DNA of 64,000 nucleotides from Gloeomargaritales cyanobacterium VI4D9 (GTDB lineage Bacteria > Cyanobacteriota > Cyanobacteriia > Gloeomargaritales > Gloeomargaritaceae), in NCBI GenBank assembly GCA_927797885.1, contig OV696605.1:124001-188000 (forward strand), given 5' to 3'. Shown here in pieces: positions 32,201-55,882 of the stretch (its first letter is position 1; each line of letters starts with the position of its first letter). The notes under the pieces were generated by a model. The model was not told the DNA's origin and made no database searches. It was given only the letters and a program-made list of their open reading frames with translations. Both the position numbers and the translations under genes were made by a program.

Positions 32201-32554
32201 GCTTTGTGAACAAATGGCTTATAATGTGTACAAATTATTCAGTCTGCCTACTTGCTGTAGGGATTGAAATTTGCTGAAGAGCGGTTGGCTTTTTTAGAGA
32301 GAGGGCTAGCTCAGTGGTTTTAGAGAGATTCCAGAAGGAACTGGATCAGCCTCGAAAAAGGGTGCTTTCTGGTGAGAGAGACACTGACCAACCGAAAAGA
32401 ATGAGGATTGTTGAGCAGTTAGACGAAGAAGCTCAGCGCAAGTTGGAGGTGATTCAGTCGTTGCTAGAGCCATGTGACCGTACCACCTATGGGCAAAAGC
32501 TACGGGAAGCTACTCTTAAACTAGGGTGTTCTGTCCGAACTGTACAGCGGTTAG

Positions 32555-32735
32555 TTATGTTGCCAGTGCCAGAGCTGTGCTTAGTCAGGGTTATTGGTGA
32601 AGGGGCACTGGAGTCAGTGGGTAGTAGAGGCGATCAGTGGAAAATTTATACAACAACATAACAAATCACTGCACCCGACTTGGAGCTACACTTTAAGCAT
32701 TATCCAAAACTACTGGTAGCGGGTGAGTTCAGCCG
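32555..32735 (+). mobile_element. Putative integron gene cassette inside tnsB
   Basis: The insert is bounded by G/TTA on both sides (GTTA at 32554-32557 and 32735-32738), the cleavage point used by integron integrases. Its 3' part is an attC-like site. A 34-codon frame (ATG 32557, MLPVPELCLVRVIGEGALES, ending QWKIYTTT) stops inside the attC, as cassette genes do. Length 181 bp. No integrase gene is in the window, so it would have come from an integron elsewhere. The alternative, an unrelated short insertion, would not explain the paired boxes and G/TT borders. Confidence 0.72.
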
Positions 32736-32741
32736 TTAAAC
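32656..32741 (+). other. attC-like recombination site
   Basis: The left arm TAAC-N9-CACCCG (TAAC 32659-32662, CACCCG 32672-32677) is mirrored by CGGGTG-N9-GTTA (CGGGTG 32720-32725, GTTA 32735-32738). The spacers are equal in length but unlike in sequence, and the terminal loop is about 42 nt. This is the R''/L''-L'/R' architecture of an attC site, with R' reading GTTAAAC (consensus GTTRRRY). Confidence 0.75.
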
Positions 32742-34203
32742 GCTGGGAAGTAGAGGGAGTTTCTGCCTTGATGACCTCTGGTCGGGCTGACCAGGGTAAG
32801 CATCGAATCTCCGAGTTCTGGCAAAACTTTATCATCAAAACTTACGAGGCGGGCAATAAGGGTAGTCGGCGTATGAACTCCAAGCAAGTTGCCCTTAGAG
32901 TACAGGCGAAAGCAGGTGAGATAGGGGATGCTAACCCTCCCAGTTACAGAACCGTGTTGCGGGTATTGGAGCCAATCGTTGAGCGAAAGGAAAAAGCCAA
33001 GAGCATTCGTAGTCCAGGTTGGAGGGGGACAACCCTAATGCTCAAGACGTGTGAGGGGCAAGCTCTCTCGGTCGAATACAGCAATCAGGTCTGGCAGTGC
33101 GACCATACCCGTGTAGATGTAATGCTTGTTGATCAGTACGGAGAGGTACTGGGGCGACCTTGGCTGACGACCGTTATTGATACCTATTCACGTTGCATTA
33201 TGGGCATCAATCTCGGGTTTGATGAGCCAAGCTCTCTGGTGGTGGCTCTTGCCTTGCGTCATGCTATTTTGCCAAAAAAATATGAGCCAGAATACAAGCT
33301 CAACTGTGAGTGGGGTACGTTTGGTAAGCCCGTCCATTTCTACACCGACGGGGGCAAAGACTTTCGCTCCAATCATCTTCAACGAATTGCGGCGGATCTA
33401 GGGATTTCCTGCCACTTGCGCAATCGTCCCTCAGAGGGTGGCGTTGTGGAGCGACCCTTCCGAACCCTAAATAATCAGTTGTTTTCAACCTTGCCCGGAT
33501 ACACCGGGTCGAATGTTCAGCAACGCCCCGAAAACACCGAGAAAGATGCCAGTCTTACTCTAAGGGATTTGGAACACCTGATTGTGCGGTTTATTTGTGA
33601 CCAATACAATCAGACTGTTGATGCCCGCATGGGTGACCAAACTCGACTCCAGCGATGGGAAGCAGGATTACGAAAGGTGCCAGAATTGATTGACGAGAAG
33701 CACTTGGATGTGTGCCTCATGAAGGAAAGTCGGCGTACCGTGCAACGGGGTGGTTACCTACAATTTGAGAATTTGCTTTACCGGGGAGAAAACCTAGCTG
33801 GTTATGCTGGGGAAGTGGTTTCCATCCGGTTTGACCCCAAGGACATCACCATGATCCGAGTTTATCGTAAGGAAAGGAAAGAAGAAGTTTTTCTGACCTG
33901 TGCCTATGCTCAGGGTCTTCAGACTGAGCAACTCTCCTATCAAGAGGTCAAGGCAAGTAGTAAATACCTACGAGCCAAGGGCAGGGGGATCAGTAATGAA
34001 TCGATTCTTCAGGCAGTGCTGGAACGAGATGCCCTGGTTGTTAAGAAAAGCTGGAAGCAACGGCAGAGGGAGGAGCAGATGCTAGCTAAGTCCACAAAAG
34101 TGTCTGAGCCAGAGCCTATTGAAACCGGTCAGGAACCGGTTGAGGAGGTTAGTATAGATATGGATGCCTTTGAGCCGATTGATTTTGATGATATTCGCAG
34201 AGC

Positions 34204-35049
34204 TTGGTGAGTATGGAACAAGCTAGGGCATGGGCTGAGGCATTGGGAGAATCTCAGCCTGATTCAGTGCATCTGGAAGCAGAAATCGACCGTTTACGTA
34301 AAAAAACGGTTTTGCCGCTGGAGCATGTCATTAAACTCCATACCTGGCTGGATGGGAAGCGCAGAGCACGGCAATCATGTCGCATTGTTGGGGCATCCAG
34401 AACAGGTAAATCAAGTGCTTGTGAGGCGTATTTTTACCGAAATAAGCCGACCCAGGAAACGGGCAAAAAGCCGATTGTCCCGGTGGTGTACATTCAGCCG
34501 CCGAAAAAGTGTAGCTCTAAGGATTTATTCAAGGAGTTAATTGAATTTCTAAAGTATCGGCTCGACAAGGGAACAGTCTCAGATTTCCGGGGGCGAGCCT
34601 TTGAGGTACTCAAGGGCTGTAAGGTGGAGATGATTATCATTGACGAAGCGGATCGCCTTAAGCCAGAAACCTTTGCTGATGTCCGTGATTTTTACGACAA
34701 GTTGGCGATTTCGGTGGTCTTGGTGGGCACTGACAGGCTGAATAGGCTAATCAAGCGGGATGAGCAGGTTTATAACCGTTTTCGAGCCTCCTATCGCTTT
34801 AGTCAGCTTTTGGAGGAGGATTTCGTCAAAACGGTCAAGATTTGGGAAGAGAAGGTATTGGCATTGCCGGTGGCTTCCAACTTGATTAGCAAACCAATGC
34901 AGAAAATTCTGTTGGAGGCGACGGAAGGGTACATTGGCTTCATAGATGAGATTTTACGGGAGGCGGCGATTTGCTCCTTGAGCAGAGGGTACAAAAAGAT
35001 TGAAATGTCAGTGCTAAAAGAGGTAGCCAGGGAGTACCATGACAAGTGA
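34204..35049 (+). CDS. tnsC: TnsC AAA+ regulator of the V-K CAST
   Basis: 281 residues, the short V-K form. TnsC polymerises on DNA with ATP and links Cas12k/TniQ target binding to TnsB. Walker A is GASRTGKSS, Walker B is MIIIDEADRL, and sensor-like VVLVGTDRLNRL follows. The start overlaps the end of tnsB, and the stop overlaps tniQ by four bases, as in other V-K operons. No lesion is seen. Confidence 0.95.
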   Translation: MVSMEQARAWAEALGESQPDSVHLEAEIDRLRKKTVLPLEHVIKLHTWLDGKRRARQSCRIVGASRTGKSSACEAYFYRNKPTQETGKKPIVPVVYIQPPKKCSSKDLFKELIEFLKYRLDKGTVSDFRGRAFEVLKGCKVEMIIIDEADRLKPETFADVRDFYDKLAISVVLVGTDRLNRLIKRDEQVYNRFRASYRFSQLLEEDFVKTVKIWEEKVLALPVASNLISKPMQKILLEATEGYIGFIDEILREAAICSLSRGYKKIEMSVLKEVAREYHDK

Positions 35050-35552
35050 TGGTAAATGCCGGAATTCAACCGTGGCTGTTTGAGGTAGAACCCTATTCGG
35101 GCGAGAGTTTGAGTCATTACTTGGGACGGTTTCGGCATGCAAATCATCTAACCGTCTCTGCTTTGGGAGTGGCAACTGGTTTGGGGGGCATTTTCATCAA
35201 GCGATTAGAACATTTTCATCTCAATCCCTTTCCCACAGCAAAACAAATCGCAGATTTAGCCAGCTATATCGGGATTGATCCACAGAAGGTGCAGGGTATG
35301 TTGCCCGCTCAGGGAGTTGCCATTAAGTTGGAGCCATCCCGTCTGTGTGCGGCGTGTTACGCTGAGGTTCCATATCACCGATTGGCATGGCAATACAAGC
35401 AAACGTCAGGGTGTGAAAAACACCGTTTACGTCTCTTATCGGAGTGCCCGAAATGTAAGAAACGGTTTGGAATTCCAGCCCTTTGGCATGGAGCCTGTAA
35501 CCGATGTGGTATGACTTTTGAGGCTATGCAAATAATGCAAAAAAGCTTTTAG
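35046..35552 (+). CDS. tniQ: TniQ of the V-K CAST
   Basis: 168 residues, the compact V-K type. The N-terminal TniQ domain has LFEVEPYSGESLSHYLGRFRHANHLTV. Then comes LCAACYAEVPYHRLAWQ with a C-x2-C, GCEKHRLRLLSECPKC, and a final zinc ribbon CPKCKKRFGIPALWHGACNRC. It caps the TnsC filament next to Cas12k. It overlaps tnsC by four bases. The sequence appears complete. Confidence 0.95.
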   Translation: MMVNAGIQPWLFEVEPYSGESLSHYLGRFRHANHLTVSALGVATGLGGIFIKRLEHFHLNPFPTAKQIADLASYIGIDPQKVQGMLPAQGVAIKLEPSRLCAACYAEVPYHRLAWQYKQTSGCEKHRLRLLSECPKCKKRFGIPALWHGACNRCGMTFEAMQIMQKSF

Positions 35553-35969: not shown

Positions 35970-38921
35970 TCAGGCAGCATTTCGCTGATAAGTCAAACGA
36001 AATATGGTGTCACCCAGCCATTTTTTAAACGATGGGTTGTCACTGTATTGTCTGAACAATTCTGTATTGTCAGCCAGCAATTCGATCACCACCCGTTGTA
36101 GAGCCGCATCGTGTTCGATCCGGGCTGTTTTCTCGTCGTTATTTTTCATAGCATTTTGATACGCAGTATCGGCTCCGACCTTGGTGGGGATTTCCTCCAA
36201 GATAACACGGCATATCCTGTCCGCATCCTTCCATTCAATGTTGCCAAATAGGTCGTTAAATGACTTGATAATGTTGCTCAGTTGATCCATCTCGGGTTCA
36301 GGCTTGCGACCTCCACCACTCGTTGGCACGGGAGCAATTTCGACATCTTCATCGGTGAAATTGATGCTTAGGCTGGCTTTCACCTCCACCCGATAGCTTT
36401 CCATATCAATCGCTTCCAAAATACCCCTGGAATGATCCTCCTCAATGGGGGCGGGGAGCTTTGGAATTAAGAAGTTTAGGAAAACCGAAAGTTTTTCCCA
36501 TTCGGCATTGGAATAGGGCAAGATGCAAGCTAAAAATCCATAGGTTCGCACAAAAGCCTTGGCCTTGCCTTTGAAGTCCACCTGACCATCCTCATCGAGG
36601 TCGGTGTTATAGATGCCCACACAGGTATCTAGGATGGGGTCGAGTTTGTCCCGGTCTGCGCCACTTAAGTAAAGTTCCACCAGGGTATTGACTTGCCCCC
36701 GTTCATAGACCTGATAACCGTCCAAATCAGCCTTGAGGTCGTGTAACTTGTTTGGGTCGGTTTCATCGCTGAGAATAGTGGTACGGTAGTAGGGTTCAAA
36801 AGCCCTTTGGATGGTCTCCGAATCGTTGTAAAAATCGAGCACAAAGGTATCATGCTTCAGGGGATGGGCACGGTTGAGGCGAGAGAGGGTCTGCACTGCC
36901 TTGATCCCGGACAGGGCTTTATCAACGTACATGGTGTGGAGCAGGGGTTCGTCGTAACCGGTCTGATACTTGTCGGCAACAATCAAAAATCGGTAAGGGT
37001 CTTGCCGGATTTTTTCGGGTATCAAATTGCTGGGGAAGCCGTTTAGGGAGGCTTCGGATACCTTGGTTTCCCCATATTGATATTCCCCCGAAAAGGCTAC
37101 GATGGGCGCATAGGGGCTTTTACATACGGCGAGATAGTCTCGGAAGGCGTGGAAATACTGGATGGCTCGCTCAATACCATTAGTGATGACCATTGCCCTA
37201 GCTTGTCCGCCGATCTTCCGGTAACCAATGACTTGCTCGTGGAAGTGGTCAATCATGATTTCAGCCTTCTCACGGATGGCATATTCATGGGATTCAACAA
37301 AACGGCGCAGTCTTTTGTGTGCTTTCTTCACATCGAATAGGGGGTCGCCTTCGACGGTTTTGGCGAGACGGTAATAGCTTTCGACAGGGGTGTAGTGTTT
37401 CAGCACATCGAGGATAAAACCCTCCTGAATCGCCTGCTTCATGGTGTAGCTGTCGAATGGGTAGTGCTTAACCGTGCCGTCGGATTGGGGGTCGGCTTCT
37501 CCGAATATCTCAAGGGTCTTGTTTTTGGGAGTAGCGGTGAAGGCAAAATAACTGGCATTGGCTAACATTTTGCGGCTCTGCATCAATTCGTTGATTTTAT
37601 CTTCGATATTTTCTTCTTCTTCAGATTCCGAGACCTCAGAAGCGAGTGCCATATTCATTTTTGAGGCAGTGCGTCCGCCTTGGCTGGAGTGTGCTTCGTC
37701 AATGATGATCGCAAATGTACTCCTGCGGTGCTCATCACCAATTTCATCCAGGATGAAGGGGAACTTTTGCACGGTGGTGATAATAATCTTTTTGCCGTCC
37801 CTGAGAAATTGGCGCAGGTCGCCGGAACGCTCGGCGTGTCCAATGGTGGCAGAAACTTGAGCAAACTGCTTGATAGTATCCCGAATTTGCCGATCCAGAA
37901 CTTTTCGGTCGGTAACAACGATAATCGAGTCAAAAATCGCTTTTTTATCCCGTTCTAACCCCACCAACTGATGCGCCAGCCACGCAATGGAATTGCTCTT
38001 GCCACTGCCCGCTGAATGTTGGATCAGATAGCGTTTCCCTACACCGTTTTGCTTGGCATCTGCAAGGAGCTTTCGCACCACAGATAGTTGGTGATAACGA
38101 GGGAATATCTGCCTGTATTTCTTCTTACCTGTTTGTTCATCTTTTTCCTCCACCACCTGAGCGTAGTTTTCTAAAATGTCGGTGAGACGCTCCTTGGTCA
38201 AAATCTCTTTCCAAAGATAGTCAGTTGCCAACCCTGACGGGTTCGGAGGGTTGCCAGCACCATTGTTATACCCCTTGTTGAAGGGCAGGAACCATGACTT
38301 TTCCCCCCTGAGATGGGTGCAGAACCGCACTTCATGATCGTCAACGGCAAAGTGAACCAGACAACGGGCAAACTGGCACAGGAGTTCCCTGGGGTCACGG
38401 TCACGTTGGTATTGCTGTACGGCATCGAGGACGGTCTGCTTGGTTAGTTTATTTTTTAATTCAAAAGTGGCAATGGGAAGCCCATTAATGAAAATAACCA
38501 TGTCCAGGCTGAGGGCGGATTCATTACGGCTGTACCTGAGTTGGCGGGTGACGCTAAAGATATTGGTGGCGAATCGTTCGGCGGCTTTGACGTTCCCCGG
38601 GGTTGGAGAGCCGAAAAATAGTTCGATACTAGCCGGACCATGTTTGATGCCGTGACGCAGACAATCCACCACGCCCCGTTTGGTAATTTCACCCTGGAGC
38701 CGGTGCAAAAATTGGGTGCGTTTGGAGCCTTCTTGCTCAATGCTGAGAAGTTTATAGGTTTCCGGCTGGCTGGTTGCCAAGAATTGGAACAACTTTGCCA
38801 GATCGACGGCGTGTTCCTTGTCGTAGTCCTGGGAATTTCCCTGCACGTAGCCGGACTCGTTGACCAAGGAAGCGACGATGAGGGATTCCAAGCCCTTTTC
38901 ACTGATGTCGGTGGGTTTCAT
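35970..38921 (-). CDS. hsdR: Type I restriction endonuclease subunit R
   Basis: HsdR (983 residues) is the ATP-dependent translocase and nuclease of a type I system. The N-terminal nuclease domain has LDMVIFINGLPIATFELKNKLTKQTVLDAVQQY, where ELK is the ExK of the PD-(D/E)xK site. Helicase motifs are HSAGSGKSNSIAW (I), IIIDEAHSSQGG (II) and FTATPKNKT (III). It is the last gene of a five-gene minus-strand operon hsdM-hsdS-mntA-hepT-hsdR. Its start overlaps the hepT stop by four bases. CAST cargo; probably defence against phage. Confidence 0.95.
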   Translation of the reverse strand: MKPTDISEKGLESLIVASLVNESGYVQGNSQDYDKEHAVDLAKLFQFLATSQPETYKLLSIEQEGSKRTQFLHRLQGEITKRGVVDCLRHGIKHGPASIELFFGSPTPGNVKAAERFATNIFSVTRQLRYSRNESALSLDMVIFINGLPIATFELKNKLTKQTVLDAVQQYQRDRDPRELLCQFARCLVHFAVDDHEVRFCTHLRGEKSWFLPFNKGYNNGAGNPPNPSGLATDYLWKEILTKERLTDILENYAQVVEEKDEQTGKKKYRQIFPRYHQLSVVRKLLADAKQNGVGKRYLIQHSAGSGKSNSIAWLAHQLVGLERDKKAIFDSIIVVTDRKVLDRQIRDTIKQFAQVSATIGHAERSGDLRQFLRDGKKIIITTVQKFPFILDEIGDEHRRSTFAIIIDEAHSSQGGRTASKMNMALASEVSESEEEENIEDKINELMQSRKMLANASYFAFTATPKNKTLEIFGEADPQSDGTVKHYPFDSYTMKQAIQEGFILDVLKHYTPVESYYRLAKTVEGDPLFDVKKAHKRLRRFVESHEYAIREKAEIMIDHFHEQVIGYRKIGGQARAMVITNGIERAIQYFHAFRDYLAVCKSPYAPIVAFSGEYQYGETKVSEASLNGFPSNLIPEKIRQDPYRFLIVADKYQTGYDEPLLHTMYVDKALSGIKAVQTLSRLNRAHPLKHDTFVLDFYNDSETIQRAFEPYYRTTILSDETDPNKLHDLKADLDGYQVYERGQVNTLVELYLSGADRDKLDPILDTCVGIYNTDLDEDGQVDFKGKAKAFVRTYGFLACILPYSNAEWEKLSVFLNFLIPKLPAPIEEDHSRGILEAIDMESYRVEVKASLSINFTDEDVEIAPVPTSGGGRKPEPEMDQLSNIIKSFNDLFGNIEWKDADRICRVILEEIPTKVGADTAYQNAMKNNDEKTARIEHDAALQRVVIELLADNTELFRQYSDNPSFKKWLGDTIFRLTYQRNAA

Positions 38922-39801: not shown

Positions 39802-41211
39802 TCATTCCTCCTCATCTATCTCTTCATCTTCCATGATGTCATCTACCTCGGTTAAATCCTCATCATCCATCAGCAGTTCTTCTTCTGCCACCTCTGGCAC
39901 CTCAATGCCTCGCACATCCAATTTGCCCGTAACCACATCGGAAACAAGGCGGGTGCGGTATTCCTGAATCAGTTCTATTTCCCGTTCAGTACGGGCGATC
40001 GCTTTGTCAATGAGGGCAGTTTCTTTTTTGATAAATTCGACTATCTTATCTTGTTCTTGAAGTGCAGGAACAACTAAAAGTAACTGCGAATACTTATCAG
40101 CGCCGATATTTTCTATCGTTGCTTTACTAAAAATCGATATTTTCCATCTATCAAAAACTAGTGACTGTGTATATAGGTACAAAAAATCGCTGGTTATAAC
40201 ATTCTGATTTGGTTTTGCTTTTATCAAATATCCCGCAAAGCAGGAAGGCTCGTCCAGTTTCTTACACTGAAATACCTTGCCAACAGTTGCACCGCTTCTA
40301 GCAAATAGCAAGTCACCTTCTTCAAGAAGATACTCCTCGAATCTATCAATATCTAGTGAAAGTTTGTTTTTATCATCTAAATATCCGTCGGAATTAAAAT
40401 CTGTGATTCTAATATAGCGTGGATATTCTGAAGAGTAATCAGTTCCAGAAGCATTTGCTCCATACTTTAGTTTTCCACAGATGCAATGCTTCAGTTTCCT
40501 CACCGCCCAATGCGCTGGTATCTGCCCAAGCCATTCCACGCCGCTGTCTTTCATTTCCACATTGGGGTTAATGCCTTTGGTTACCGCTTGGTTGATGATG
40601 TTCTGCTTCTGTTCCTTTAGCAGTTGGATGAGCCGCCGTTTATTGCGGATGAATTTATTGATCTGGGCGGTTTTCCAGTCAAGGTAACGGACAATATGAT
40701 TTTGCTCTTCTACTGGAGGGAACAAGGCATATATCGCACCGAAAGAAGGAGTGTATAAACGGTTGAAACCATCACCAACACCTCTTGAGGCATTCGCAAA
40801 TAAATCAACCCAAGTTCGAGTTTTAAAGAGCAAAGAATAATAACTGACAGAAGTTGAGTTTTTGTCTATTACATCAAAAACACTGTAGTCAGGCGAAACA
40901 ACTCCCTCTAAACGAACATCGGTAAACATTCCACTCCAAGCCTGCATTCTATTCATTAGGAGATTACCTAAACGACATACTTTATACTTAGATAAATCCG
41001 AAGAACTTGGAGGGCGGTTATTTAGAGAAGAGTATAAAATTAAGCCTTTCTTGCGACTAAATGATAACAATTTTAGATTAGATGTTTGACTTCTTTCTTC
41101 TCGCTCTCTAAAAAGAAATTTTATCTTACGCAATTCCCAATGTTCTGGCACTTCCCCCAACCAAGGCACGCCAGAATCCTTGTATTTTGGGTAAGGTTTC
41201 AGCTTCATCAC
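39802..41211 (-). CDS. hsdS: Type I restriction specificity subunit S
   Basis: 469 residues with the two target-recognition domains and spacer helices of HsdS. The repeat landmarks are PKYKDSGVPWLGEVPEHWELRKIK at the start and MKDSGVEWLGQIPAHWAVRKLKHC near residue 220. Each is followed by a conserved helix region (EEQNHIVRYLDWKTAQINKFI and ALQEQDKIVEFIKKETALIDKAI). The acidic tail (EEELLMDDEDLTEVDDIMED) is unusual. Its start overlaps the hsdM stop. The downstream 245-bp gap before mntA is the only break in the operon and may hold an internal promoter. Confidence 0.93.
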   Translation of the reverse strand: MMKLKPYPKYKDSGVPWLGEVPEHWELRKIKFLFREREERSQTSNLKLLSFSRKKGLILYSSLNNRPPSSSDLSKYKVCRLGNLLMNRMQAWSGMFTDVRLEGVVSPDYSVFDVIDKNSTSVSYYSLLFKTRTWVDLFANASRGVGDGFNRLYTPSFGAIYALFPPVEEQNHIVRYLDWKTAQINKFIRNKRRLIQLLKEQKQNIINQAVTKGINPNVEMKDSGVEWLGQIPAHWAVRKLKHCICGKLKYGANASGTDYSSEYPRYIRITDFNSDGYLDDKNKLSLDIDRFEEYLLEEGDLLFARSGATVGKVFQCKKLDEPSCFAGYLIKAKPNQNVITSDFLYLYTQSLVFDRWKISIFSKATIENIGADKYSQLLLVVPALQEQDKIVEFIKKETALIDKAIARTEREIELIQEYRTRLVSDVVTGKLDVRGIEVPEVAEEELLMDDEDLTEVDDIMEDEEIDEEE

Positions 41212-43340
41212 TCAGCCTCCCCCACAATTTCTTCTAACAAACCTTCCGTTTCCCGTTCCAAAGCGTAGATGTCTGCCTTAATCTCTTCCAGTGTTCGCAT
41301 GGGCGTAGGTTTGTAAAAATGCTTAGTAAACGAAATCTCATAGCCAATTTGCGTCTTTTCCCGGTCGATCCAGGCATCCGGGGTGTAGGGCAAAACCTCC
41401 CGCTGAAAGAACGCCTCGATGCCCCCCGGTTCCAACAACGGAATCTGCTCGCTATCCCGTAGTGCCGTATCTGGCTCGTACTCGACCACATGGGGTTTCC
41501 CATCAATCTCCATTGCAAACAGCCCGTAAAGGGGGTTGGGCATGACCTTACCCGGCTTGTAAACCTTACTCACTACGGGTGCCGCATCCTCACTGGTGTC
41601 ACAGAGTTCACTTTGGAGTAACTTTTTGCGCTTGGCAGTGAGCTTAATGCTGTGTCTGCCTGCCAACCAGTCACAGGTTTTCATAAAAACGTTGAAGTCC
41701 CGCTGAGGTGCGGCTCCCATCGCTTCCAACAGGATTTTGACCAAGCTGACCAACGGCTCCTCTCCGGCTTGCTTGCAGGTTTTTTGAAAGCGTTCCAACC
41801 GGGTCGGGCTGAGGTCAACCGCCAACCGCAACGGGCGTTCCACCGTCACCTTCCAATACCCGAAAGCCTCATTGGGAAAAATCTTAGATTTCTCGGTTTC
41901 TACTGGATTCACCACCAGGTCACAGATGCGGGCGATCAATTCCTCTGAAAACTCGCAGTTTTTTTTGCCCAGGTTACGGCGCAGTGGTACATACCATTCA
42001 CTGGCATCAATCAATTGCACCTTGCCCCGACGCTCTGGGGATTTTCGATTGGACAATAACCAAATATAAGTGGCAATACCAGTGTTGTAAAACATATTCT
42101 CCGGCAGGGCAATGATCGCCTCCAGCCAGTCATTTTCGATGATCCAGCGGCGGATATTACTCTCTCCCTGTCCCGCATCACCAGTGAACAAAGAAGAACC
42201 ATTGTGAACTTCTGCAATCCGGCTACCCAGGGCGGTGTTGTGCTTCATTTTGGAGAGCTTATTCACCAAGAACATCAACTGTCCATCATTGGAGCGAGTG
42301 ATCATTTTGTATTCCCCGTCGCCGCCATGCTGGGTGACAAAGCGTGGGTCTTTGATGTCCCCCTTACCACCCAATCGGTCTAAGTCAGTTTTCCAGCTTT
42401 TGCCGTAGGGTGGATTCGAGAGCATAAAGTCAAACTCCATACTGGGGAAGGCATCGGCGGACAGGGTAGAGCCAAATTTGATGTTGTCTGCTTCGCTCCC
42501 TTCACCCTTGAGCAACAGGTCAGCCTTGGCAATGGCGTAGGTTTCTGCCTGTGACTCCTGCCCATAAAGATGGATGGTGACTTCCTTGCCGTGTGCGGTC
42601 GCCAAATTTTTCAAGCGCTCCTCTGCCACAGTCAGCATCCCCCCGGTGCCGCAAGCCCCGTCATAGACAAGGTAGGTTCCCGACGTGATCTGGTGGGTCA
42701 CGGGCAAAAAAATCAAATCCGCCATCAGCCTCACCACATCCCTTGGCGTGAAGTGCTCCCCCGCCTCCTCGTTATTATCTTCATTGAAGCGGCGGATCAA
42801 TTCCTCAAAAATCGTACCCATAGCGTGGTTGTCCAGGGCTGGCAGAACCTCAGTTCCAAAAGCATCCACCACGGGTTTGTGGCTGAGGTTGTAGCGATTG
42901 TCAAGAAACTTCTCAATGAGGTGTCCGAGAATATCTGCCTCAACTAAGGTGGGAATTTGATAGCGGAATTTGAATTTATCCAGAATTTCTTGAACATTGG
43001 GAGAGAACCCATCGAGGTACAACTCGAAATCAGATTTAAGCTGTTGTTGTTTGGCACGGTTCCTCAGGTCACGAAGCGTGAACGGTGAGATATTGTAAAA
43101 AGCTTCCCCAGCCGCATGACACAGAGCCGCGTGTTGGTTGGCGATTTTAGCCTCATCGAGTTGCTTCTTCATGCTGAGGACAGCTTCTTTGGTCGGTTCC
43201 AACAGGGCATCCAGGCGGCGGATCACCGTCATCGGTAGGATCACATCTCGGTACTTGCCACGCACATACACATCCCGGAGGACATCATCTGCAATGCCCC
43301 ATATAAAATTCACGATGCCGTTATAAAACGAGTGGTTCAT
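41208..43340 (-). CDS. hsdM: Type I restriction methyltransferase subunit M
   Basis: 710 residues, longer than the usual 500. The N6-adenine methyltransferase core has YDGACGTGGMLTVAEERL (SAM site) and FDFMLSNPPYGKSW (catalytic NPPY). It is preceded by the HsdM N-terminal domain and EEAGEHFTPRDVVRLM. The extra C-terminal 200 residues (DWLAGRHSIKLTAKRKKLLQ onward) are a domain seen in long HsdM proteins. It is first in the operon; the 245 bp upstream probably hold its promoter. Confidence 0.94.
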   Translation of the reverse strand: MNHSFYNGIVNFIWGIADDVLRDVYVRGKYRDVILPMTVIRRLDALLEPTKEAVLSMKKQLDEAKIANQHAALCHAAGEAFYNISPFTLRDLRNRAKQQQLKSDFELYLDGFSPNVQEILDKFKFRYQIPTLVEADILGHLIEKFLDNRYNLSHKPVVDAFGTEVLPALDNHAMGTIFEELIRRFNEDNNEEAGEHFTPRDVVRLMADLIFLPVTHQITSGTYLVYDGACGTGGMLTVAEERLKNLATAHGKEVTIHLYGQESQAETYAIAKADLLLKGEGSEADNIKFGSTLSADAFPSMEFDFMLSNPPYGKSWKTDLDRLGGKGDIKDPRFVTQHGGDGEYKMITRSNDGQLMFLVNKLSKMKHNTALGSRIAEVHNGSSLFTGDAGQGESNIRRWIIENDWLEAIIALPENMFYNTGIATYIWLLSNRKSPERRGKVQLIDASEWYVPLRRNLGKKNCEFSEELIARICDLVVNPVETEKSKIFPNEAFGYWKVTVERPLRLAVDLSPTRLERFQKTCKQAGEEPLVSLVKILLEAMGAAPQRDFNVFMKTCDWLAGRHSIKLTAKRKKLLQSELCDTSEDAAPVVSKVYKPGKVMPNPLYGLFAMEIDGKPHVVEYEPDTALRDSEQIPLLEPGGIEAFFQREVLPYTPDAWIDREKTQIGYEISFTKHFYKPTPMRTLEEIKADIYALERETEGLLEEIVGEAE

Positions 43341-47812: not shown

Positions 47813-48153
47813 AATGGCGAACACTAAATAGATCACCCTAGTAAAGACCTGTTACTCAATCTCTAGAAGCATCCTAAAGGTAACCCAATTTTCCCAATTT
47901 TTTCAATGTTTTCACTACTGAAGATTTAGTTTGAGCCATTGATAGCTGCGGGTCAGTTCGCAAGCCCGTTAGAGAATTTAGCCACAGAGTCAGGACTAAG
48001 CCAACATGAACGAGAGATTTCATGCGATATTTCGTGAAAAAAGCGACACAGCCTAGCAGGAATCAAATACAACCCATCTGGGCTAGTGTGGCACGTATTC
48101 GATCTAAGCATAGGATAATTGGATGCATGTTGCCCTTGCAAGAATTAGGCTTA

Positions 48154-48278
48154 TGGGTGCCTCTATTTATTGATTTTTGTACTTATACAGCAGGCTCGGA
48201 AGCCCCATTCTCTCGTTGGCAATTGTCAATAAAGTAGGGGTTCAGTCTCAATAGCCATGAATGAATAGAGGTGCCCTA
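48154..48278. repeat. MITE-B copy inside CAST
   Basis: TGGGTGCCTCTATTTATTGA to ATGAATAGAGGTGCCCTA, a full-length copy of about 125 bp. It lies in the gap 47813-48393 between the kinase and CHAT genes. The rest of that gap has no supported gene. Confidence 0.75.
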
Positions 48279-48393
48279 TAGTGCATTTCATTTGTAATTA
48301 ATCATAGTGAATTGGTATTTGGACGGTTGACAGACAAGATAACACTTGCTATAATTGGGCTTCCTATACTGTCTAAGTTAGTTCTATTCAGGC

Positions 48394-50931
48394 ATGGACT
48401 TCTTTCCATTCTGCAAATGGGTCATTGGGATTAACTCCATCAAGTGGTTTCTCATCCAATGTGTAAGCTTGGTCAGTATTTTTACACCACTCCCTGTGAA
48501 TGCACAAGCAATCAGTAATCCTCTAGAAAAAGCTTCTGAATATATTCACAGAGATATGGACAATCATCGATTAGAAGGTGATACGAAGGCTCGTCTTGAG
48601 GAAGGTAAATTCCACCTGTTTGCTTTGGAGAACCTTCCAAACCGGGACTGGCTGGTTACTGAAGATATTTGTAAACTTAGGTTCTACCTAGCTGCCGCTT
48701 ATGAATTTGATGTCCTAAACACTAGGAAAATTTGTAGAGATTACTACGAATCGGCTATGAACTACTTCGATACGCTCTTGGTTGGCAATCTAGAAGAATT
48801 TGATATTGTCACAGCATATGCCAATGAAAGCAAGGTTGCTGACTGGGAGCGACGTATTAGATGGATTGAGAGAATGGTCAAAGAACTAGCATCCACTGGT
48901 GACCCTATGCACAAACAACAAGCCCGTTTTGTTCTCTGTCGCATAAGAGCTTATCTCTCTATAAAATACGAGTACGAGAGAGATAAAGCCACTCAAATAT
49001 GTAAAGAATTCTTTGACGAACTAGATTATAGTTCCTTGATGGATAGTGATTTACTTGGGTTAACTTTTCCCCTAGGAACCCAGAGCCATGGTGAAAGACC
49101 AAAAATCCTTCGTAAGCTTGAATATAATAGACATTATAATAGACATTCTACAGATGAAGAAACAATTAAGTTTCTTCTGATTTCCAACTATTTTGAACTT
49201 AAAAATTTCGACAAAATACTCCAAATATTTTCTCAATCTCCCGCAGAAGATATTGAGTACTCCTACCTTGGTTATGCCCAACTTGCCACAGGTGACCTCA
49301 ATACTGCAAAACAGTCATTTGAATATGCGGTAAACATATTAAAACGACGTATTTTAGTGCATGAGCCTGCAATTTCCAGGAACTCTACAGTGTTCGTTGG
49401 TCTCGATTTTAGTGGACACGATATGAGTTCTGGAGAATTTACGGGTCTTGCCATGATTCAGCTCCGGCAGAATCGGTTTGCGGAGGCATTAGAGTATGTT
49501 GAGCAGTCACGAGCAATGGGGTTAAGATATATTCTGGGGTCAAAAAATTTTGAATCTCTGAAATTTAATGAAATGCAATCGGTTGCTAAGAGCCAGAACG
49601 TCACTTTTGTGGTGTACTCGAGTATGCCCAATCTGGGGACTGATCCGGAACACCAAAGTGACTTGGGAATCTACGTACTCCAACCCGATGGTGATCTCCA
49701 CTTTGAGTTAGTTCCCCTCAATCAACTTTCTACCGTTGTTGCTTCCGTTTCACAGAGCCTTGCTCGGGGTGGTTTTCGTCAGCCTGTAACCATTTTAGTT
49801 CTCACCCTCTCTGGGGGAGTAGCTTTACTCCTGTTGTTAAGTGCAATCGTTCTGTTTCTGTATTTTAAAAAACCAATTATTGCTACCAGTGTAGTACTAC
49901 TCAGTTTCCTGAGCAGTTTACCCTTAGTTGCATTGACCTCAGGTCATGTAGCAAGTGAGCAGCCATCCACATTGGCTGTTGCCCAGAGGGTGAGTTTTAA
50001 GCAATTAATCAATACTGCCTTCGTTTTTGCTCGTTCCGGTACCAGGAGTTCGTTACCGGGAGGTTTGCGCACCGATCCAGCCTGTACCAGCCAAGATAGT
50101 TGCTTAGCAAGTTTGTATGAAATACTTATCAAGCCGATTGAGCAATATTTACCTCAAGATAGCAACGCTCAAGTTGTGTTTTTGCCCGAGGGTGAACTGT
50201 ATAAAGTACCTTTTTATGCACTCAAAGATCGCAATGGCAAGCAAGTGATCGACAAACACACTATCAGTGTTACTCCATCGATTCAGATTTTTAAAAAGTT
50301 GGTCGAGAAGCCAGCTGCAAAAACGAAGGGTGCTTTGGTTGTGGGTAACCCTACGATGCCAACAATGAGTTTGAATACCGAAGTACAAGATGATGTCCCA
50401 GAACTTAGTCCATTGCCAGGTTCGGAACGAGAGGCAAAAAAAATCGGTCAAATCTTTGGGACTAGTGCATTAATTGGGAGTCAAGCCACAAAGAGAAATG
50501 TAGTTTCGCGGATGAAATCTGCAAATATCATTCATCTTGCCACACATGGATTACCTCATGACTGGGGAGTAATTGTGTTAGCACCGGAGTCTGGTGACTC
50601 TGGACTGCTTGATGCTACCTCAATTAGTGGGTTAGAACTAGACAGTGACCTGATTGTTCTGAGTGCCTGCGATACGGGTACCGGAATTTTGTCCGGTGAG
50701 GGTGCAATTGGACTAGCACGACCATTCATTATTGCCGGTGCTCGTACTGTGATTGCCTCCCTTTGGCCGATACCTGATGAATCAACATCGGAAATGATGG
50801 TAGATTTCTACAAAAATTTGCAGTCTTCTCCAAATAAAGCCCAGGCTTTACGTAAAGCCATGCTCAAAACTCGGGAAAAATACCCCGACTCTCAATTTTG
50901 GGCAGGATTTAATTTAGTTGGCAAACCCTAA
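48394..50931 (+). CDS. CHAT-domain protease with helical repeats
   Basis: 845 residues. A signal-like hydrophobic start (KWFLIQCVSLVSIFTPLPVNAQ) precedes about 380 residues of TPR-like helices (YLGYAQLATGDLNTAKQSFEYAVNIL, EALEYVEQSRAMGLRYIL). A membrane segment follows at about 465-515 (VTILVLTLSGGVALLLLLSAIVLFLYF and TSVVLLSFLSSLPLVAL), and then a CHAT caspase-like domain. Its dyad is complete: His718 in IIHLATHG and Cys759 in VLSACDTGTG. CHAT proteases act in bacterial defence and signalling. As the last gene after COP23 and a kinase, it may be a kinase-controlled effector (inference). Confidence 0.88.
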   Translation: MDFFPFCKWVIGINSIKWFLIQCVSLVSIFTPLPVNAQAISNPLEKASEYIHRDMDNHRLEGDTKARLEEGKFHLFALENLPNRDWLVTEDICKLRFYLAAAYEFDVLNTRKICRDYYESAMNYFDTLLVGNLEEFDIVTAYANESKVADWERRIRWIERMVKELASTGDPMHKQQARFVLCRIRAYLSIKYEYERDKATQICKEFFDELDYSSLMDSDLLGLTFPLGTQSHGERPKILRKLEYNRHYNRHSTDEETIKFLLISNYFELKNFDKILQIFSQSPAEDIEYSYLGYAQLATGDLNTAKQSFEYAVNILKRRILVHEPAISRNSTVFVGLDFSGHDMSSGEFTGLAMIQLRQNRFAEALEYVEQSRAMGLRYILGSKNFESLKFNEMQSVAKSQNVTFVVYSSMPNLGTDPEHQSDLGIYVLQPDGDLHFELVPLNQLSTVVASVSQSLARGGFRQPVTILVLTLSGGVALLLLLSAIVLFLYFKKPIIATSVVLLSFLSSLPLVALTSGHVASEQPSTLAVAQRVSFKQLINTAFVFARSGTRSSLPGGLRTDPACTSQDSCLASLYEILIKPIEQYLPQDSNAQVVFLPEGELYKVPFYALKDRNGKQVIDKHTISVTPSIQIFKKLVEKPAAKTKGALVVGNPTMPTMSLNTEVQDDVPELSPLPGSEREAKKIGQIFGTSALIGSQATKRNVVSRMKSANIIHLATHGLPHDWGVIVLAPESGDSGLLDATSISGLELDSDLIVLSACDTGTGILSGEGAIGLARPFIIAGARTVIASLWPIPDESTSEMMVDFYKNLQSSPNKAQALRKAMLKTREKYPDSQFWAGFNLVGKP

Positions 50932-51454: not shown

Positions 51455-52285
51455 CTAGGTTTTATCTGGGCTTTCCCGCAGTCTCTCCCAAAGTTCGTCA
51501 GGCGTAGGAAAATTATCCCTCTCTCTTGTGATGTGATTACTAAAATCGTATTCAACAATGCCAATGCCGTTAGTTGAATAAGCAAACTGTAGCTCTAACA
51601 TCTCGGCACAATTTTTCGCTTGCTTCAGCCCGTCACCCGCATCCATATAAACAGATTTCGCTTCCACCACAGCAATCGCCCCATGATGACCATAGTTCAG
51701 AATATAATCAGCTTTTGCTCTATTCTTGCGCCCTGACCGAGTGGATGAACTTTTATTTTTAGCCACAATTTCCCCATGAACAGTAATGGAATGTGGACTT
51801 TTATCCCAACCTGCCTCTATCAGTTTTGCCATGACCAGTTCCTCAACCGATTGCGGATGTTCAATCGTTGTTTGAATTTGTCGTTGTAAATCATCTATCG
51901 GTATGACCGTCATACTAAAAACCCCTTGCTTCACCAGAGCCGCTACTTTCTGAGGGTCAAATTCCTCCACAACGAGCTTTTGTTGGGCATCCTCCCACCG
52001 CAACAGAAACCGCCGGGCTTGCTCCGGCTGGGCATACCCCCCATCCAGCTTTTGCAACACTGCCAACGACATCGCTATCGCCGCCAAGTCATACCCCCGC
52101 TGTAACAGGTAATGCACGATGGACAGGTTCACCAAGTTTTCCCGGTCGTAATACGCACTGTACCCCGTACCCGTCGGATTCACCACCGGCACGACTAACC
52201 CCTTACTCCGCCAGTATTGCAGTTGCCGGATGGTACAGCCCGTGATGCGCGCCGCCTCCTTGGTACTGAAAAACATCGTGCCCAA
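51455..52285 (-). CDS. CvkR-like MerR regulator fused to HsdR-N-type domain
   Basis: 276 residues. The N-terminal MerR-type helix-turn-helix is STKEAARITGCTIRQLQYWRSKGL and the wing GYSAYYDRENLVNLSIVHYLL. The C-terminal part (about 146-262) resembles the N-terminal nuclease domain of type I restriction R subunits: KLIEAGWD, KADYILNY (Asp193), IAVVEAKS (Glu208, Lys210), GLKQAKNCAEML and YSTNGIGIVEYDF. It is divergent from cas12k, the place of the known repressor CvkR, which controls cas12k and crRNA expression. The added PD-(D/E)xK-like domain is unusual; whether it cuts DNA is unknown. Confidence 0.85.
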   Translation of the reverse strand: MGTMFFSTKEAARITGCTIRQLQYWRSKGLVVPVVNPTGTGYSAYYDRENLVNLSIVHYLLQRGYDLAAIAMSLAVLQKLDGGYAQPEQARRFLLRWEDAQQKLVVEEFDPQKVAALVKQGVFSMTVIPIDDLQRQIQTTIEHPQSVEELVMAKLIEAGWDKSPHSITVHGEIVAKNKSSSTRSGRKNRAKADYILNYGHHGAIAVVEAKSVYMDAGDGLKQAKNCAEMLELQFAYSTNGIGIVEYDFSNHITRERDNFPTPDELWERLRESPDKT

Positions 52286-52329
52286 GTCTCAACTGGCTTC
52301 ATAGTACCCCGAAGTGCTTTCAATGGCTA

Positions 52330-52383
52330 GACAACTTTTAATACAGATATGCTATTATTAAATAGATCAACTGCTGTGAATGT
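52330..52383. promoter_or_regulatory. Divergent promoter and candidate operator of regulator and cas12k
   Basis: The 98-bp gap between the two divergent starts has AT-rich promoter-like sequence (TTTTAATACAGATATGCTATTATT). It also has an inverted repeat CTATT-ATTA-AATAG at 52352-52365, overlapping a likely -10 region of cas12k. This is a plausible binding site for the MerR-type regulator. The cas12k ATG follows GTGAATGT with no strong Shine-Dalgarno sequence. Confidence 0.5.
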
Positions 52384-54189
52384 ATGAGCCAGTTAACGAT
52401 TCAGTGCCGTTTGGTTGCTTCAGAGGAAACCCGCCGCTGGGTGTGGGAGATGATGGCGGGTCGGTATGCGCCGCTGATTGCCACCACCTTGGAACAAGTT
52501 TCCCAACACAAGGATTTTCCGCAATGGGTAGCTACCGGGGAACTGCCTACCCAGGTGGTCAAAAATTTAGTGAACCAAGCGAAAAGCGGTCTGCCTGCTC
52601 GCTGGTGTGCCTCCGCCCAACGACAGGTGCAGGAAACCTACAAGGCTTGGTTGAAAAGACGGCGGAAACTGCAGCAAAAGTTACAGGGTCAGCAAACCTG
52701 GTTGAGTGTCCTCAGACCGGATGCAGAATTGGCTCAAGATGCGGGTTTATCCCTAGAGGAGATGAAAATTCGGGCACAAGCACTTCTCCATAGGGAGATC
52801 AATAATTGGTTTCAGGCGTACCTACAATGTCAGGATGTCGTTGAGCGGTCTATCTTTGCCTACTTGCTGAAACACCGCTTGACTGTGCCCACGGAGCCGG
52901 AAGATACGGACAAACTCAGGCGGAAACGGCGGCAAGTTGAAATCAAAATTGAGCGGCTGGAAACCCAGCTTGCGGGTCGCAGTCCCCAAGGGCGGGATTT
53001 GACCGGCAGTCGGTATGCAACCGCATTAAACGAAGGGGAGCAGTGCTATTGGGAAAATGACGCTGATTTTCTAGCATGGCAAACGGAAATTTTGTCTCGT
53101 CCTGATTCCCTGCCGCCTCCGGTGGAATATGCCACCAACACGGATATGACCTGGCACAAGGATGAACAGGGGCGTTTGGCGGTCACCTTCAACGGACTGG
53201 GCAAGCTGAAATTCAAAATTGCCTGCGACCAACGGCAACTGCATTGGTTTCAGCGGTTTTACCAAGACCAAGAGCAGTTCAAATCGCAAAAAGGGGCACG
53301 CAGTCAGGCGTTGTTTACGTTGCGCTCTTGTGAGTTGTTGTGGAAGCCGGGGAACCGCTCAGGAGAGCCTTGGCAGGCTAATTTTTTGTACCTTCACTGC
53401 ACAGTTGATTCCCGCCTTTGGACACAGGAAGGAACAGCTATAGTTCAACAAGAAAAAGCAAAGAAATCGCAAGCCATCGTCAAGAAATTATCAGAGCGGA
53501 GTGATTTAACCGCCCAACAACAAAAGTGTTTGGAGCGTCATCAGTCCACCTTAGCTCGGTTGCACATGGGGTATGACCGCCCCCAGCGGCGAATGTATCA
53601 GGGCAAGAGTCACCTTGCTGTGGGCATCAGTCTGGACATGGAGAACCTGGTTACTGTGGCACTGGTGGATGTCGTGAAACAAAAAGTGATTACAGGTTGC
53701 ACAATTAAAAGCCTGCTCGGTCAAGATTATGCCTTGGTTCAGCGTCTCAGATATGAAAAAAGGCAAAATTCCCACCTGCGAAAAGTCGCCCAGGAACGAG
53801 GCAGTAAAATCGTTAATTATGAAGGGAGTTTAGCCATTCATGTCGAGCGTTTGCTTGTGAAGGCGATTATCCATTTTGCCCAGCAACATCTGGCGGGGAG
53901 CCTATGTGTGCCGACCCTAAAAGATATACGGGAAACCATCCAATCTCATCTCCAATGCCGGGCAGAGGAGCGTCATCCCAATAGCAAAGAACTCCAACAC
54001 AGATACGCCAAAGAATATCGTATCAATGCCCATCGTTGGAGTTATAATAGGTTATTGAAATTACTTAATCAGCAAGCCAAGATTGCTGGTTTAGTAGTAG
54101 AGCAGGGGGTGCAAAGTGCGGGTGAAACTGCTTTAGAAAGAGCGTTAGGGGTCGCCTTAAGTGCTTATTATCAACGCAGTGCCGCTTGA
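52384..54189 (+). CDS. cas12k: Cas12k, nuclease-dead effector of V-K CAST
   Basis: 601 residues, on the short side for Cas12k (about 630-650). Homology runs throughout: MSQLTIQCRLVASEETRRWVW, NDKQ-type helices, DMTWHKDEQGRLAVTFNGLGKLKFKI, and RuvC-like strands VGISLDMENLVTVALVD, GSKIVNYEGSLA and TALERALGVALSAYY. The catalytic acids expected in an active RuvC (GID, IVxED, ADxNGA) are absent here: GIS and CVPTLKD. This fits a guide-only effector. It is the only cas gene, followed by tracrRNA and the array, as in V-K. No frame lesion. Confidence 0.95.
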   Translation: MSQLTIQCRLVASEETRRWVWEMMAGRYAPLIATTLEQVSQHKDFPQWVATGELPTQVVKNLVNQAKSGLPARWCASAQRQVQETYKAWLKRRRKLQQKLQGQQTWLSVLRPDAELAQDAGLSLEEMKIRAQALLHREINNWFQAYLQCQDVVERSIFAYLLKHRLTVPTEPEDTDKLRRKRRQVEIKIERLETQLAGRSPQGRDLTGSRYATALNEGEQCYWENDADFLAWQTEILSRPDSLPPPVEYATNTDMTWHKDEQGRLAVTFNGLGKLKFKIACDQRQLHWFQRFYQDQEQFKSQKGARSQALFTLRSCELLWKPGNRSGEPWQANFLYLHCTVDSRLWTQEGTAIVQQEKAKKSQAIVKKLSERSDLTAQQQKCLERHQSTLARLHMGYDRPQRRMYQGKSHLAVGISLDMENLVTVALVDVVKQKVITGCTIKSLLGQDYALVQRLRYEKRQNSHLRKVAQERGSKIVNYEGSLAIHVERLLVKAIIHFAQQHLAGSLCVPTLKDIRETIQSHLQCRAEERHPNSKELQHRYAKEYRINAHRWSYNRLLKLLNQQAKIAGLVVEQGVQSAGETALERALGVALSAYYQRSAA

Positions 54190-54716: not shown

Positions 54717-55709
54717 GTTGCATCCGCCTTCCAGCAACTAGGGCGGGTGAAAGGGCGAACCTGACCTTTGCAAACTTGAACGGGGCAGGTTGCATCCGCC
54801 TTCCAGCAACTAGGGCGGGTGAAAGATTAAGTCGGGATCGGGGGTTGCCTTAGCGAGCATGGTTGCATCCGCCTTCCAGCAACTAGGGCGGGTGAAAGAT
54901 TAAGTCGGGATCGGGGGTTGCCTTAGCGAGCATGGTTGCATCCGCCTTCCAGCAACTAGGGCGGGTGAAAGACCTCACACAAACCTTGAAAGTCACGATT
55001 CCAAAGGGTTGCATCCGCCTTCCAGCAACTAGGGCGGGTGAAAGCCTCTGGCATCACCGTAGCCGCCAACCCCTACGTCTAGGAGTTGCATCCGCCTTCC
55101 AGCAACTAGGGCGGGTGAAAGGGAAACCAAGGTGCTAAGGCATTGTTTAACATTGTGTTGCATCCGCCTTCCAGCAACTAGGGCGGGTGAAAGTCCACGA
55201 CGCCATGTGCCAGCACGACCGATCACAGTTGCATCCGCCTTCCAGCAACTAGGGCGGGTGAAAGCCTCTGGCATCACCGTAGCCGCCAACCCCTACGTCT
55301 AGGAGTTGCATCCGCCTTCCAGCAACTAGGGCGGGTGAAAGGGGGATTTTCCCTTCATCTCCCGGCTGGGTCTCAAACGTTGCATCCGCCTTCCAGCAAC
55401 TAGGGCGGGTGAAAGCCTAATGTCATTCTTTGATCCCATTTTGCGATTACGTTGCATCCGCCTTCCAGCAACTAGGGCGGGTGAAAGATATGCTTCCCAT
55501 CTCTCTGACCTACTCGGTGCCTGTTGGTTGCATCCGCCTTCCAGCAACTAGGGCGGGTGAAAGTTTACAACTGGAGTCGGAACATCTGGGAACCCCAGGA
55601 GTTGCATCCGCCTTCCAGTAACTAGGGCGGGTGAAAGTTTCTATTATGAATCTGTTATGAATCGAATATGAAGTTGCATCCGCTTTTCAGCAACTAGAGC
55701 AGGAGAGGC
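54717..55709 (+). CRISPR. Type V-K CRISPR array, 13 spacers
   Basis: Thirteen 37-nt repeats start GTTGCATCCGCCTTCCAGCA and end CTAGGGCGGGTGAAAG. They are at 54717, 54789, 54862, 54935, 55008, 55085, 55157, 55228, 55305, 55379, 55451, 55527 and 55601. A fourteenth degenerate repeat lies at 55673-55709. Spacers are 34-40 nt. Repeats 1-12 are identical; repeat 13 has one C to T change at 55619. Spacers 2 and 3 are identical, as are 5 and 8. The GAAAG end points the crRNA to the plus strand, as for the tracrRNA. No acquisition genes are present, which is normal for V-K. Confidence 0.97.
55638..55672 (+). other. Homing spacer (spacer 13)
   Basis: The first 17 nt, TTTCTATTATGAATCTG, match the minus strand at 55936-55920 exactly, next to GGTA. 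The next bases (TTATG) differ from the target, after which AATCG matches again if a 5-nt gap is allowed. It is preceded by repeat 13 (one substitution) and followed by the decayed repeat 14. This is the guide that most likely directed the present insertion. Confidence 0.88.
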
Positions 55710-55761
55710 AACATGCTATCTTTTAGGATTGCGTGGCGTAGTAATGCCATGACCAATTCCG

Positions 55762-55794
55762 GTATGTCTGCCTTCCCACAACTAAGTCAGGAAT
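55762..55794 (+). repeat. Delocalised, decayed CRISPR repeat
   Basis: GTATGTCTGCCTTCCCACAA then CTAAGTCAGGAATG follows the CRISPR repeat order (CTGCCTTCC, CAACTA, GGGCGGG-like) with about a third of bases changed. It lies about 50 bp beyond the array. The following TTTCTTGTTGATGAGGACA could be the guide of an older delocalised crRNA. Confidence 0.5.
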
Positions 55795-55824
55795 GTTTCT
55801 TGTTGATGAGGACAAAGGGGGTGT

Positions 55825-55872: not shown

Positions 55873-55882
55873 ATTTCAGTTA
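55873..55882. repeat. CAST flanking direct repeat, right copy
   Basis: ATTTCAGTTA, identical to 31978-31987 and touching the TGTACA end. See the left copy for comment on its length. Confidence 0.75.

What the first reader, a model, noticed from the sequence alone, without database searches (positions are those of the whole stretch)
51455..52285. CAST repressor position occupied by a MerR-HsdR-N fusion with PD-(D/E)xK-like residues
The protein joins a MerR-type DNA-binding head to a domain like the nuclease N-terminus of type I R subunits, keeping Asp193, Glu208, Lys210 and a QxxxY/Q-type helix. The known V-K repressor (CvkR) is a MerR-type protein in this divergent position. A nuclease-like sensor domain on a CAST repressor could link CAST release to DNA damage, modification state or foreign DNA. 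It sits in the same transposon as a whole type I system.
Basis: partly seen in the sequence, partly recalled or inferred. Interest (0 to 1): 0.7.

Follow-up and report, generated by a model that had tools for sequence, protein, structure and literature searches.

The report
Transposon repressor fused to restriction-enzyme domain
In a cyanobacterial CRISPR-guided transposon, the gene in the repressor's position is fused to the nuclease-like front end of a DNA-restriction enzyme; relatives elsewhere carry the whole restriction subunit in a complete restriction operon, which suggests a physical link between transposon control and foreign-DNA defence that can now be tested.

Summary
The 276-codon ORF (start more likely ATG at 52276) is a CvkR homologue (residues 4-137; Alr3614/7xn2, E 1.6e-18) joined to the N-terminal domain of an EcoAI-family type I R subunit (149-269; 3h1t, E 6.7e-21). 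D193, E208 and K210 are present, but the QxxxY tyrosine is Cys here. The architecture was already reported in one sentence (Ziemann 2023: four CvkR-HsdR fusions). What appears new is the context. In other cyanobacterial type V-K CASTs CvkR is fused to a complete HsdR (940-1069 aa) followed by hsdM and, in most, hsdS, with intact catalytic motifs and CvkR operators at cas12k (and tnsB). HsdRs of at least four lineages lie fused to, or directly behind, cvkR. The short form in the window is a motor-less derivative. Truncation at the same domain boundary occurred in three lineages, the retained domain is under purifying selection (dN/dS 0.15-0.19), and two of these genomes lack any cognate HsdM. 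So the HsdR-N domain is probably a working part of the regulator; what it senses, if anything, is unproven. In the window the head has lost R42 and the canonical operator is absent, so repression itself is inferred. The transposon's own type I system is of another HsdR subfamily.

The parts
51455..52276 (-). CvkR-HSDR_N fusion gene, 273 aa from the likely ATG start (276 aa from TTG 52285)
   Evidence: relatives start at the same Met
51875..52276 (-). CvkR-like head (residues 4-137): MerR winged HTH plus CvkR dimerisation region; R20, Q23, Y24 kept, R19->I, K40->T, R42->Y, N66->D
   Evidence: phmmer to 7xn2 E 1.6e-18; alignment A1; residue roles from PMC9938897
51479..51850 (-). HSDR_N domain (residues 146-269) of EcoAI/FtnUII-family HsdR; D193 (51707-51709), E208 (51662-51664), K210 (51656-51658), QxxxY reads Q222...C226
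   Evidence: dN/dS 0.15-0.19
51475..51482 (.). cargo junction: DNA homology among window, second genomic copy and sister-species copy stops here, at the end of HSDR_N
52277..52383 (.). divergent intergenic region; conserved block with AATACAGATATGCTATT at 52340-52356, identical in the second genomic copy and with one mismatch in G085; canonical CvkR motif absent within 2 mismatches
52384..54189 (+). cas12k, 601 aa
   Evidence: ORF; 41.8% identical to the cas12k beside L038 and 95.5% to copy 2
32404..34210 (+). tnsB; N-terminal coding part 32404-32556 and remainder from 32723 lie in different frames, separated by about 166 bp
34204..35049 (+). tnsC (TniB family)
35046..35552 (+). tniQ
35970..38921 (-). 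hsdR of the separate type I system, TIGR00348 type, not related in subfamily to the fused domain
39802..41211 (-). hsdS
41208..43340 (-). hsdM

Best explanation
The gene is a CAST regulator of CvkR descent whose C-terminal part is the N-terminal (nuclease) domain of a type I restriction subunit. It belongs to a lineage in which CvkR was fused to an HsdR so that one protein was both the divergent cas12k/tnsB repressor and the R subunit of a linked R-M operon (cvkR::hsdR-hsdM-hsdS). In the window lineage the motor, HsdM and HsdS were lost and cargo was swapped in at the domain boundary, but HSDR_N was kept. Shown: homology of both parts, divergent position, full-length relatives with R-M operons and operators, truncation at the same boundary in three lineages, purifying selection on the tail, absence of cognate HsdM in two such genomes. 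Inferred: the protein still binds the cas12k promoter region and represses it (through a changed operator, since R42 and the canonical motif are both gone in this group); HSDR_N is needed for the regulator's function, most likely as a DNA-binding or assembly module without processive restriction. In the full-length relatives the likeliest use is that free R subunit represses cas12k/tnsB and its own operon, so that recruitment of R to HsdMS complexes, or its proteolysis, lowers repressor and releases the CAST.
For: Domain hits. Complete fusions: L040, L041, L042, L097, L039 (EcoKI-like HsdR, 1018-1069 aa) and L098 (EcoAI-like, 940 aa), with hsdM and, except for a fragmentary hsdS in L098, hsdS downstream, and with D...ExK, GTGKT, DECH, TATP, QxxGRxxR intact. 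CvkR operator with 0-1 mismatch in the cas12k promoter of L040, L041, L042, L043, L097, L098, L099, and with 0 mismatches 16 bp before tnsB in L041 and at the tnsB remnant of L039. Head tree: window, L098 and all EcoKI-type fusions form one all-fused group (94/70; not starred), with L038 a separate fusion. Truncated forms end at equivalent residues: window/copy2/G085, G093 (299 aa), G424 (292 aa). HSDR_N dN/dS 0.15-0.19, nuclease core 0.07-0.17. G085 and G424 have no HsdM match at E 1e-20.
Against: The window head has Y at the position of R42 (R42E abolished binding in CvkR, PMC9938897) and its cas12k promoter lacks the canonical motif, so repression is not shown. tnsB is interrupted in the window and looks broken in copy 2 and G085, and cas12k is truncated in G085, so these elements may be decaying. 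dN/dS rests on three sequences. Support of the all-fused head clade is moderate. Type I R-M genes of other kinds also often follow unfused cvkR, so the neighbourhood itself is a cargo hot spot.
Confidence: 0.58

Rival explanations
1. Passenger: the HsdR domain is a leftover of an R-M cargo operon that lay directly behind cvkR; a lost stop codon fused the genes and later deletions stopped at the first position where the protein still folds. It has no regulatory role.
For: cvkR is followed within a few bases by an unfused hsdR in L131/L151, L153 (4 bp overlap), L164, L069, and by hsdM in others, so accidental fusion is easy. Elements in the window's genus look decayed.
Against: dN/dS 0.15-0.19 for HSDR_N; three lineages stop at the same boundary and none in the all-fused head group has gone back to bare CvkR; the L038 fusion has a degenerate ATPase (Walker A, motifs II and III lost) but an open 642-codon frame.
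Confidence: 0.22
2. Sensor: HSDR_N senses DNA ends, modification state or foreign DNA and releases the repressor.
For: Complete CvkR-HsdR with HsdMS and operators gives a ready route: R bound to HsdMS on unmodified DNA, or degraded in restriction alleviation, is no longer available as repressor.
Against: No signal or conformational link can be seen in sequence; in the window form the motor, HsdM and HsdS are gone, so the R-M route cannot work there.
Confidence: 0.25
3. Targeted nuclease: a MerR-type dimer carrying two PD-(D/E)xK domains cuts DNA at or near the CvkR operator, for instance in competing CAST copies.
For: D, E and K are retained in every fused form, including those without a motor.
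Against: Type I nuclease domains are not known to cut without the translocating complex (general knowledge); the window copy lost the QxxxY tyrosine; a cutter of its own operator would be self-destructive.
Confidence: 0.06
4. Anti-restriction decoy: the HSDR_N tail competes with host R subunits.
For: It is an isolated R-subunit domain carried by a mobile element; some hosts carry type I systems (G000 has an EcoKI-like R and M at 1.11 Mb).
Against: No full-length EcoAI-family R subunit in G000 or G085 at the thresholds used, and no HsdM in G085 and G424.
Confidence: 0.06

Closest known systems
CvkR (Alr3614, Anabaena sp. PCC 7120; PDB 7xn2), type V-K CAST repressor
   Same: Homologous head (E 1.6e-18), reverse orientation directly upstream of cas12k
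   Different: CvkR is 139-185 aa without the tail; the window head lacks R42 and the promoter lacks the canonical motif
CvkR-HsdR fusions noted by Ziemann et al. 2023 (PMC9938897, four proteins, Supplementary Fig. 3)
   Same: Same architecture in outline; the window protein may be one of them (supplement could not be read)
   Different: The main text gives no operon, full-length R subunit, operator or truncation analysis of the fusions and states there is no evidence that R-M and CAST work together
Type I R subunits of the EcoAI/FtnUII family (NF046051; PDB 3h1t) and EcoKI-like family (NF008521)
   Same: The tail is the N-terminal domain of the former; full-length relatives carry either kind entire
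   Different: The window protein has no motor, no EcoEI_R_C domain and no cognate hsdM/hsdS
Control (C) proteins of type II R-M systems and CAST regulators RtaC/RtbC of I-F3
   Same: A regulator carried with the element that limits its expression after entry (general knowledge; PMC11406308 for RtaC/RtbC)
   Different: Xre-type and not fused to a restriction subunit

Membership tests
CvkR family of V-K CAST repressors | MerR-type wHTH plus CvkR dimerisation region homologous to Alr3614 | tested here: met
   (7xn2, E 1.6e-18), A1 alignment, head tree
CvkR family of V-K CAST repressors | encoded in reverse orientation directly upstream of cas12k | tested here: met
   cas12k by homology
CvkR family of V-K CAST repressors | operator AnnACATnATGTnnT in the cas12k promoter | tested here: not met
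   no site within 2 mismatches in the intergenic region; met in fused relatives
CvkR family of V-K CAST repressors | DNA-contact residues R20, Q23, K40, R42, N66 | tested here: inconclusive
   R20 and Q23 kept; T40, Y42, D66 (sequence read)
CvkR family of V-K CAST repressors | represses cas12k and tnsB | not testable with these tools
   needs gel shift and reporter
Type I R subunit (HsdR, EcoAI/FtnUII family) | HSDR_N domain | tested here: met
Type I R subunit (HsdR, EcoAI/FtnUII family) | SF2 motor and C-terminal domain | tested here: not met
   profile match ends at 134 of 768; homology ends at the domain boundary
Type I R subunit (HsdR, EcoAI/FtnUII family) | adjacent cognate hsdM and hsdS | tested here: not met
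   the only hsdMS in the element belongs to a TIGR00348-type system
PD-(D/E)xK nuclease | D...E-x-K residues on the fold | tested here: met
   D193, E208, K210; alpha-beta core matching 3h1t, model confidence modest
PD-(D/E)xK nuclease | QxxxY motif of HsdR-type nucleases | tested here: not met
   QAKNC in the window copy, QAKNY in the other two copies
PD-(D/E)xK nuclease | DNA cleavage | not testable with these tools
   needs purified protein

The most novel reading that the evidence does not exclude
In the full-length relatives the CAST repressor is the restriction subunit itself: free CvkR-HsdR silences cas12k, tnsB and its own operon, and when HsdMS on unmodified incoming DNA recruits it, or it is degraded during restriction alleviation, the CAST is released, so that arrival of plasmid or phage DNA triggers RNA-guided transposition. 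The short form in the window would be a descendant that kept the nuclease domain as its input or DNA-binding module.
Probability: 0.25. Interest if true: 0.88.

Novelty: new variant of a known kind. Interest (0 to 1): 0.58.

Why it matters
What controls CAST activity in nature is largely unknown, and the paper that defined CvkR states there is no evidence that restriction systems and CASTs work together. A repressor that is physically the R subunit of a complete restriction operon, with its operator at cas12k and tnsB, makes that link concrete and testable. It would also mean that the moment of transposition could be set by foreign-DNA detection. For the window itself the value is narrower: it shows that the nuclease domain alone is kept when the rest of the restriction enzyme is lost.

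Tried and rejected
Canonical CvkR motif in the window: 21 sites with up to 2 mismatches against 26 expected, none in the intergenic region. The conserved block AATACAGATATGCTATT occurs once in the window and not before tnsB. Standard sigma-70 promoter scan of 52200-52450: nothing, though TAGACA-N19-TATTAT can be read by eye. Origin of the tail from the transposon's own HsdR: rejected, different subfamily. Genome-contig scan with the whole protein found only free HsdRs in other phyla, because the patterns were strict. The plasmid collection held one weak CvkR-like hit, and viral contigs gave two CvkR-like loci (one weak, neither examined further). A fold of the whole fusion was not attempted: only window and the search for related loci sequences may be used, so the head would have had no alignment; sequence homology to 7xn2 is already clear. 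The supplement of PMC9938897 could not be read, so whether the window protein is among the four reported fusions is unknown.

Full report
What is there. The ORF at 51455-52285 on the minus strand encodes 276 codons from a TTG, or 273 from the in-frame ATG at 52276 that matches the start of relatives. Residues 4-137 match CvkR/Alr3614 (PDB 7xn2, E 1.6e-18) and residues 149-269 match the HsdR fragment 3h1t (E 6.7e-21). NCBIfam places the tail in the EcoAI/FtnUII R family, profile positions 8-134 of 768. AlphaFold of the tail with four free HsdRs gave a modest model (pLDDT 62) whose only significant Foldseek match is 3h1t. D193, E208 and K210 are present; the QxxxY helix reads QAKNC here but QAKNY in the two nearest copies.

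Setting. The gene is divergent from cas12k (52384-54189). The element also holds tnsB, tnsC, tniQ and a complete hsdR-hsdS-hsdM set. That hsdR matches only the TIGR00348 model, whereas the fused domain matches EcoAI-type R, so the two are not parts of one system. The genome has a second copy of the fusion, 82% identical, beside a second cas12k; a sister species (G085) has a third copy at 91%, and window DNA flanking the CAST (55671-58189) matches the flank in G085, so the insertion site is the same.

Prior report. Ziemann et al. 2023 (PMC9938897) state that four CvkR proteins are fusions with an hsdR restriction domain and that there is no evidence for R-M and CAST working together. Searches of the paper library found no other description. 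The architecture is therefore known in outline.

What the survey adds. With a head profile (A1) and single-sequence searches, about 90 CvkR heads covering over 100 profile positions were seen in the genomes searched, 12 of them in open frames that run on into HsdR sequence (my count from the tables). Six are complete R subunits: L040, L041, L042, L039, L097 (EcoKI-like, NF008521) and L098 (EcoAI-like). L041 shows MerR_1, HSDR_N, ResIII, Helicase_C and EcoEI_R_C in one chain, followed by HsdM and HsdS by Pfam. All six keep the nuclease triad and motor motifs. hsdM follows in all six, and hsdS in all but L098, which has only a weak HsdS-like fragment. In L040, L041, L042, L097 and L098 the gene is divergent from cas12k; L039 has lost cas12k but keeps a tnsB remnant. 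In L040, L097 and L098 the cas12k itself is split between frames or shows breaks in some of these copies, so not every element is intact.

Operators. The CvkR motif AnnACATnATGTnnT occurs with 0-1 mismatches in the cas12k promoter of L040, L041, L042, L043, L097, L098 and L099, and with 0 mismatches 16 bp before tnsB in L041 and at the tnsB remnant of L039. A shuffle control gave about 1.5 such sites per 19.5 kb, so about 0.01 per 100-bp promoter. In the window group the motif is absent and replaced by a conserved block around CAGATATGCTATTAT, and the head carries Y instead of R42, the residue whose change to E abolished binding in CvkR. The two losses go together and suggest changed specificity, but repression in the window is inference.

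Repeated recruitment. In the head tree the window group, L098 and the seven EcoKI-type fusions form one group without any unfused member (94/70), while L038 is a separate fusion whose sister is an unfused CvkR (100/99). HsdR trees place the R partners in at least four lineages: the EcoKI-like fused clade; an EcoAI-like lineage with L098, L038, L164 and L152; the L151/L153 pair; and L162. In L151, L153, L164 and L069 hsdR is a separate gene starting within a few bases of the cvkR stop or overlapping it. So the place behind cvkR is a recurrent site for type I R-M operons and fusion is an easy step; this is also the best argument for the passenger rival.

Loss of the motor, retention of the domain. 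In three lineages the protein stops at the same boundary: window/copy2/G085, G093 (299 aa, 71% identical to the full-length L042 up to residue 295) and G424 (292 aa, aligned to residue 287 of L041). Among window, copy 2 and G085 the DNA homology ends within a few bases of codon 269 and three unrelated cargos follow. HSDR_N in these three has pairwise dN/dS 0.15-0.19, the nuclease core 0.07-0.17, and the head 0.13-0.27. G085 and G424 contain no HsdM match at E 1e-20 with either query, and G085 has no R subunit of either family at the thresholds used. L038 is another route: its ATPase motifs are gone yet 642 codons stay open. Together these say that the HsdR part is kept for something other than restriction.

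Mechanism. Best reading: in full-length relatives one protein is repressor and restriction subunit; free R represses cas12k, tnsB and, from the shared intergenic region, probably its own operon. Engagement with HsdMS or proteolysis would reduce it. Restriction alleviation by ClpXP is established for EcoKI (abstract of PMC11109961); that it would act on CvkR-HsdR is inference. In the window only the head and HSDR_N remain; I expect HSDR_N to stabilise DNA binding or assembly. The missing Tyr argues that catalysis is not needed in this copy, and nothing computed identifies a signal.

Limits. The window tnsB is interrupted (32404-32556 and 32723 onward in different frames), and tnsB of copy 2 and of G085 is also split between frames; cas12k of G085 is truncated, so these elements may no longer move.

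Noticed in passing
window 32404-34210: tnsB reading frame is interrupted: residues 14-64 and 60-550 of a relative lie in different frames about 166 bp apart; tnsB of copy 2 (L045) and of G085 (L105) is also split between frames.
   Followed up: partly
L038 8472-10400 (G368): CvkR fused to an EcoAI-like HsdR whose Walker A, motif II and motif III are gone although 642 codons stay open; a separate HsdM-HsdS-HsdR system follows.
   Followed up: partly
L039 9559-16541 and 18872-19198 (G368): Complete CvkR-HsdR, HsdM, HsdS set without cas12k, but with a tnsB remnant and a perfect CvkR operator beside it.
   Followed up: partly
L045 11544-13969 (second copy in the window's genome): An N6-adenine methyltransferase frame runs out of frame from inside the end of the fusion gene, a second cargo joined at the same domain boundary.
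   Followed up: partly
window 46784-50931: Cargo between hsdM and the fusion includes a Ser/Thr kinase and a CHAT-domain protein (845 aa), a possible further defence module.
   Followed up: no
L044 (G085) 9110-9724: cas12k is cut to about 200 codons and the DNA then jumps to the chromosomal flank, yet the CvkR-HSDR_N gene is intact.
   Followed up: partly
L176 8001-8369 (viral contig IMGVR_UViG_2909415753_000001): A CvkR-like head (37% identity) near one end of the fetched stretch of a contig classed as viral.
   Followed up: no
L162 and L025 (G382), L069 (G408): Other unfused cvkR genes directly followed by type I hsdR of different subfamilies; the place behind cvkR looks like a hot spot for type I R-M cargo.
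   Followed up: partly
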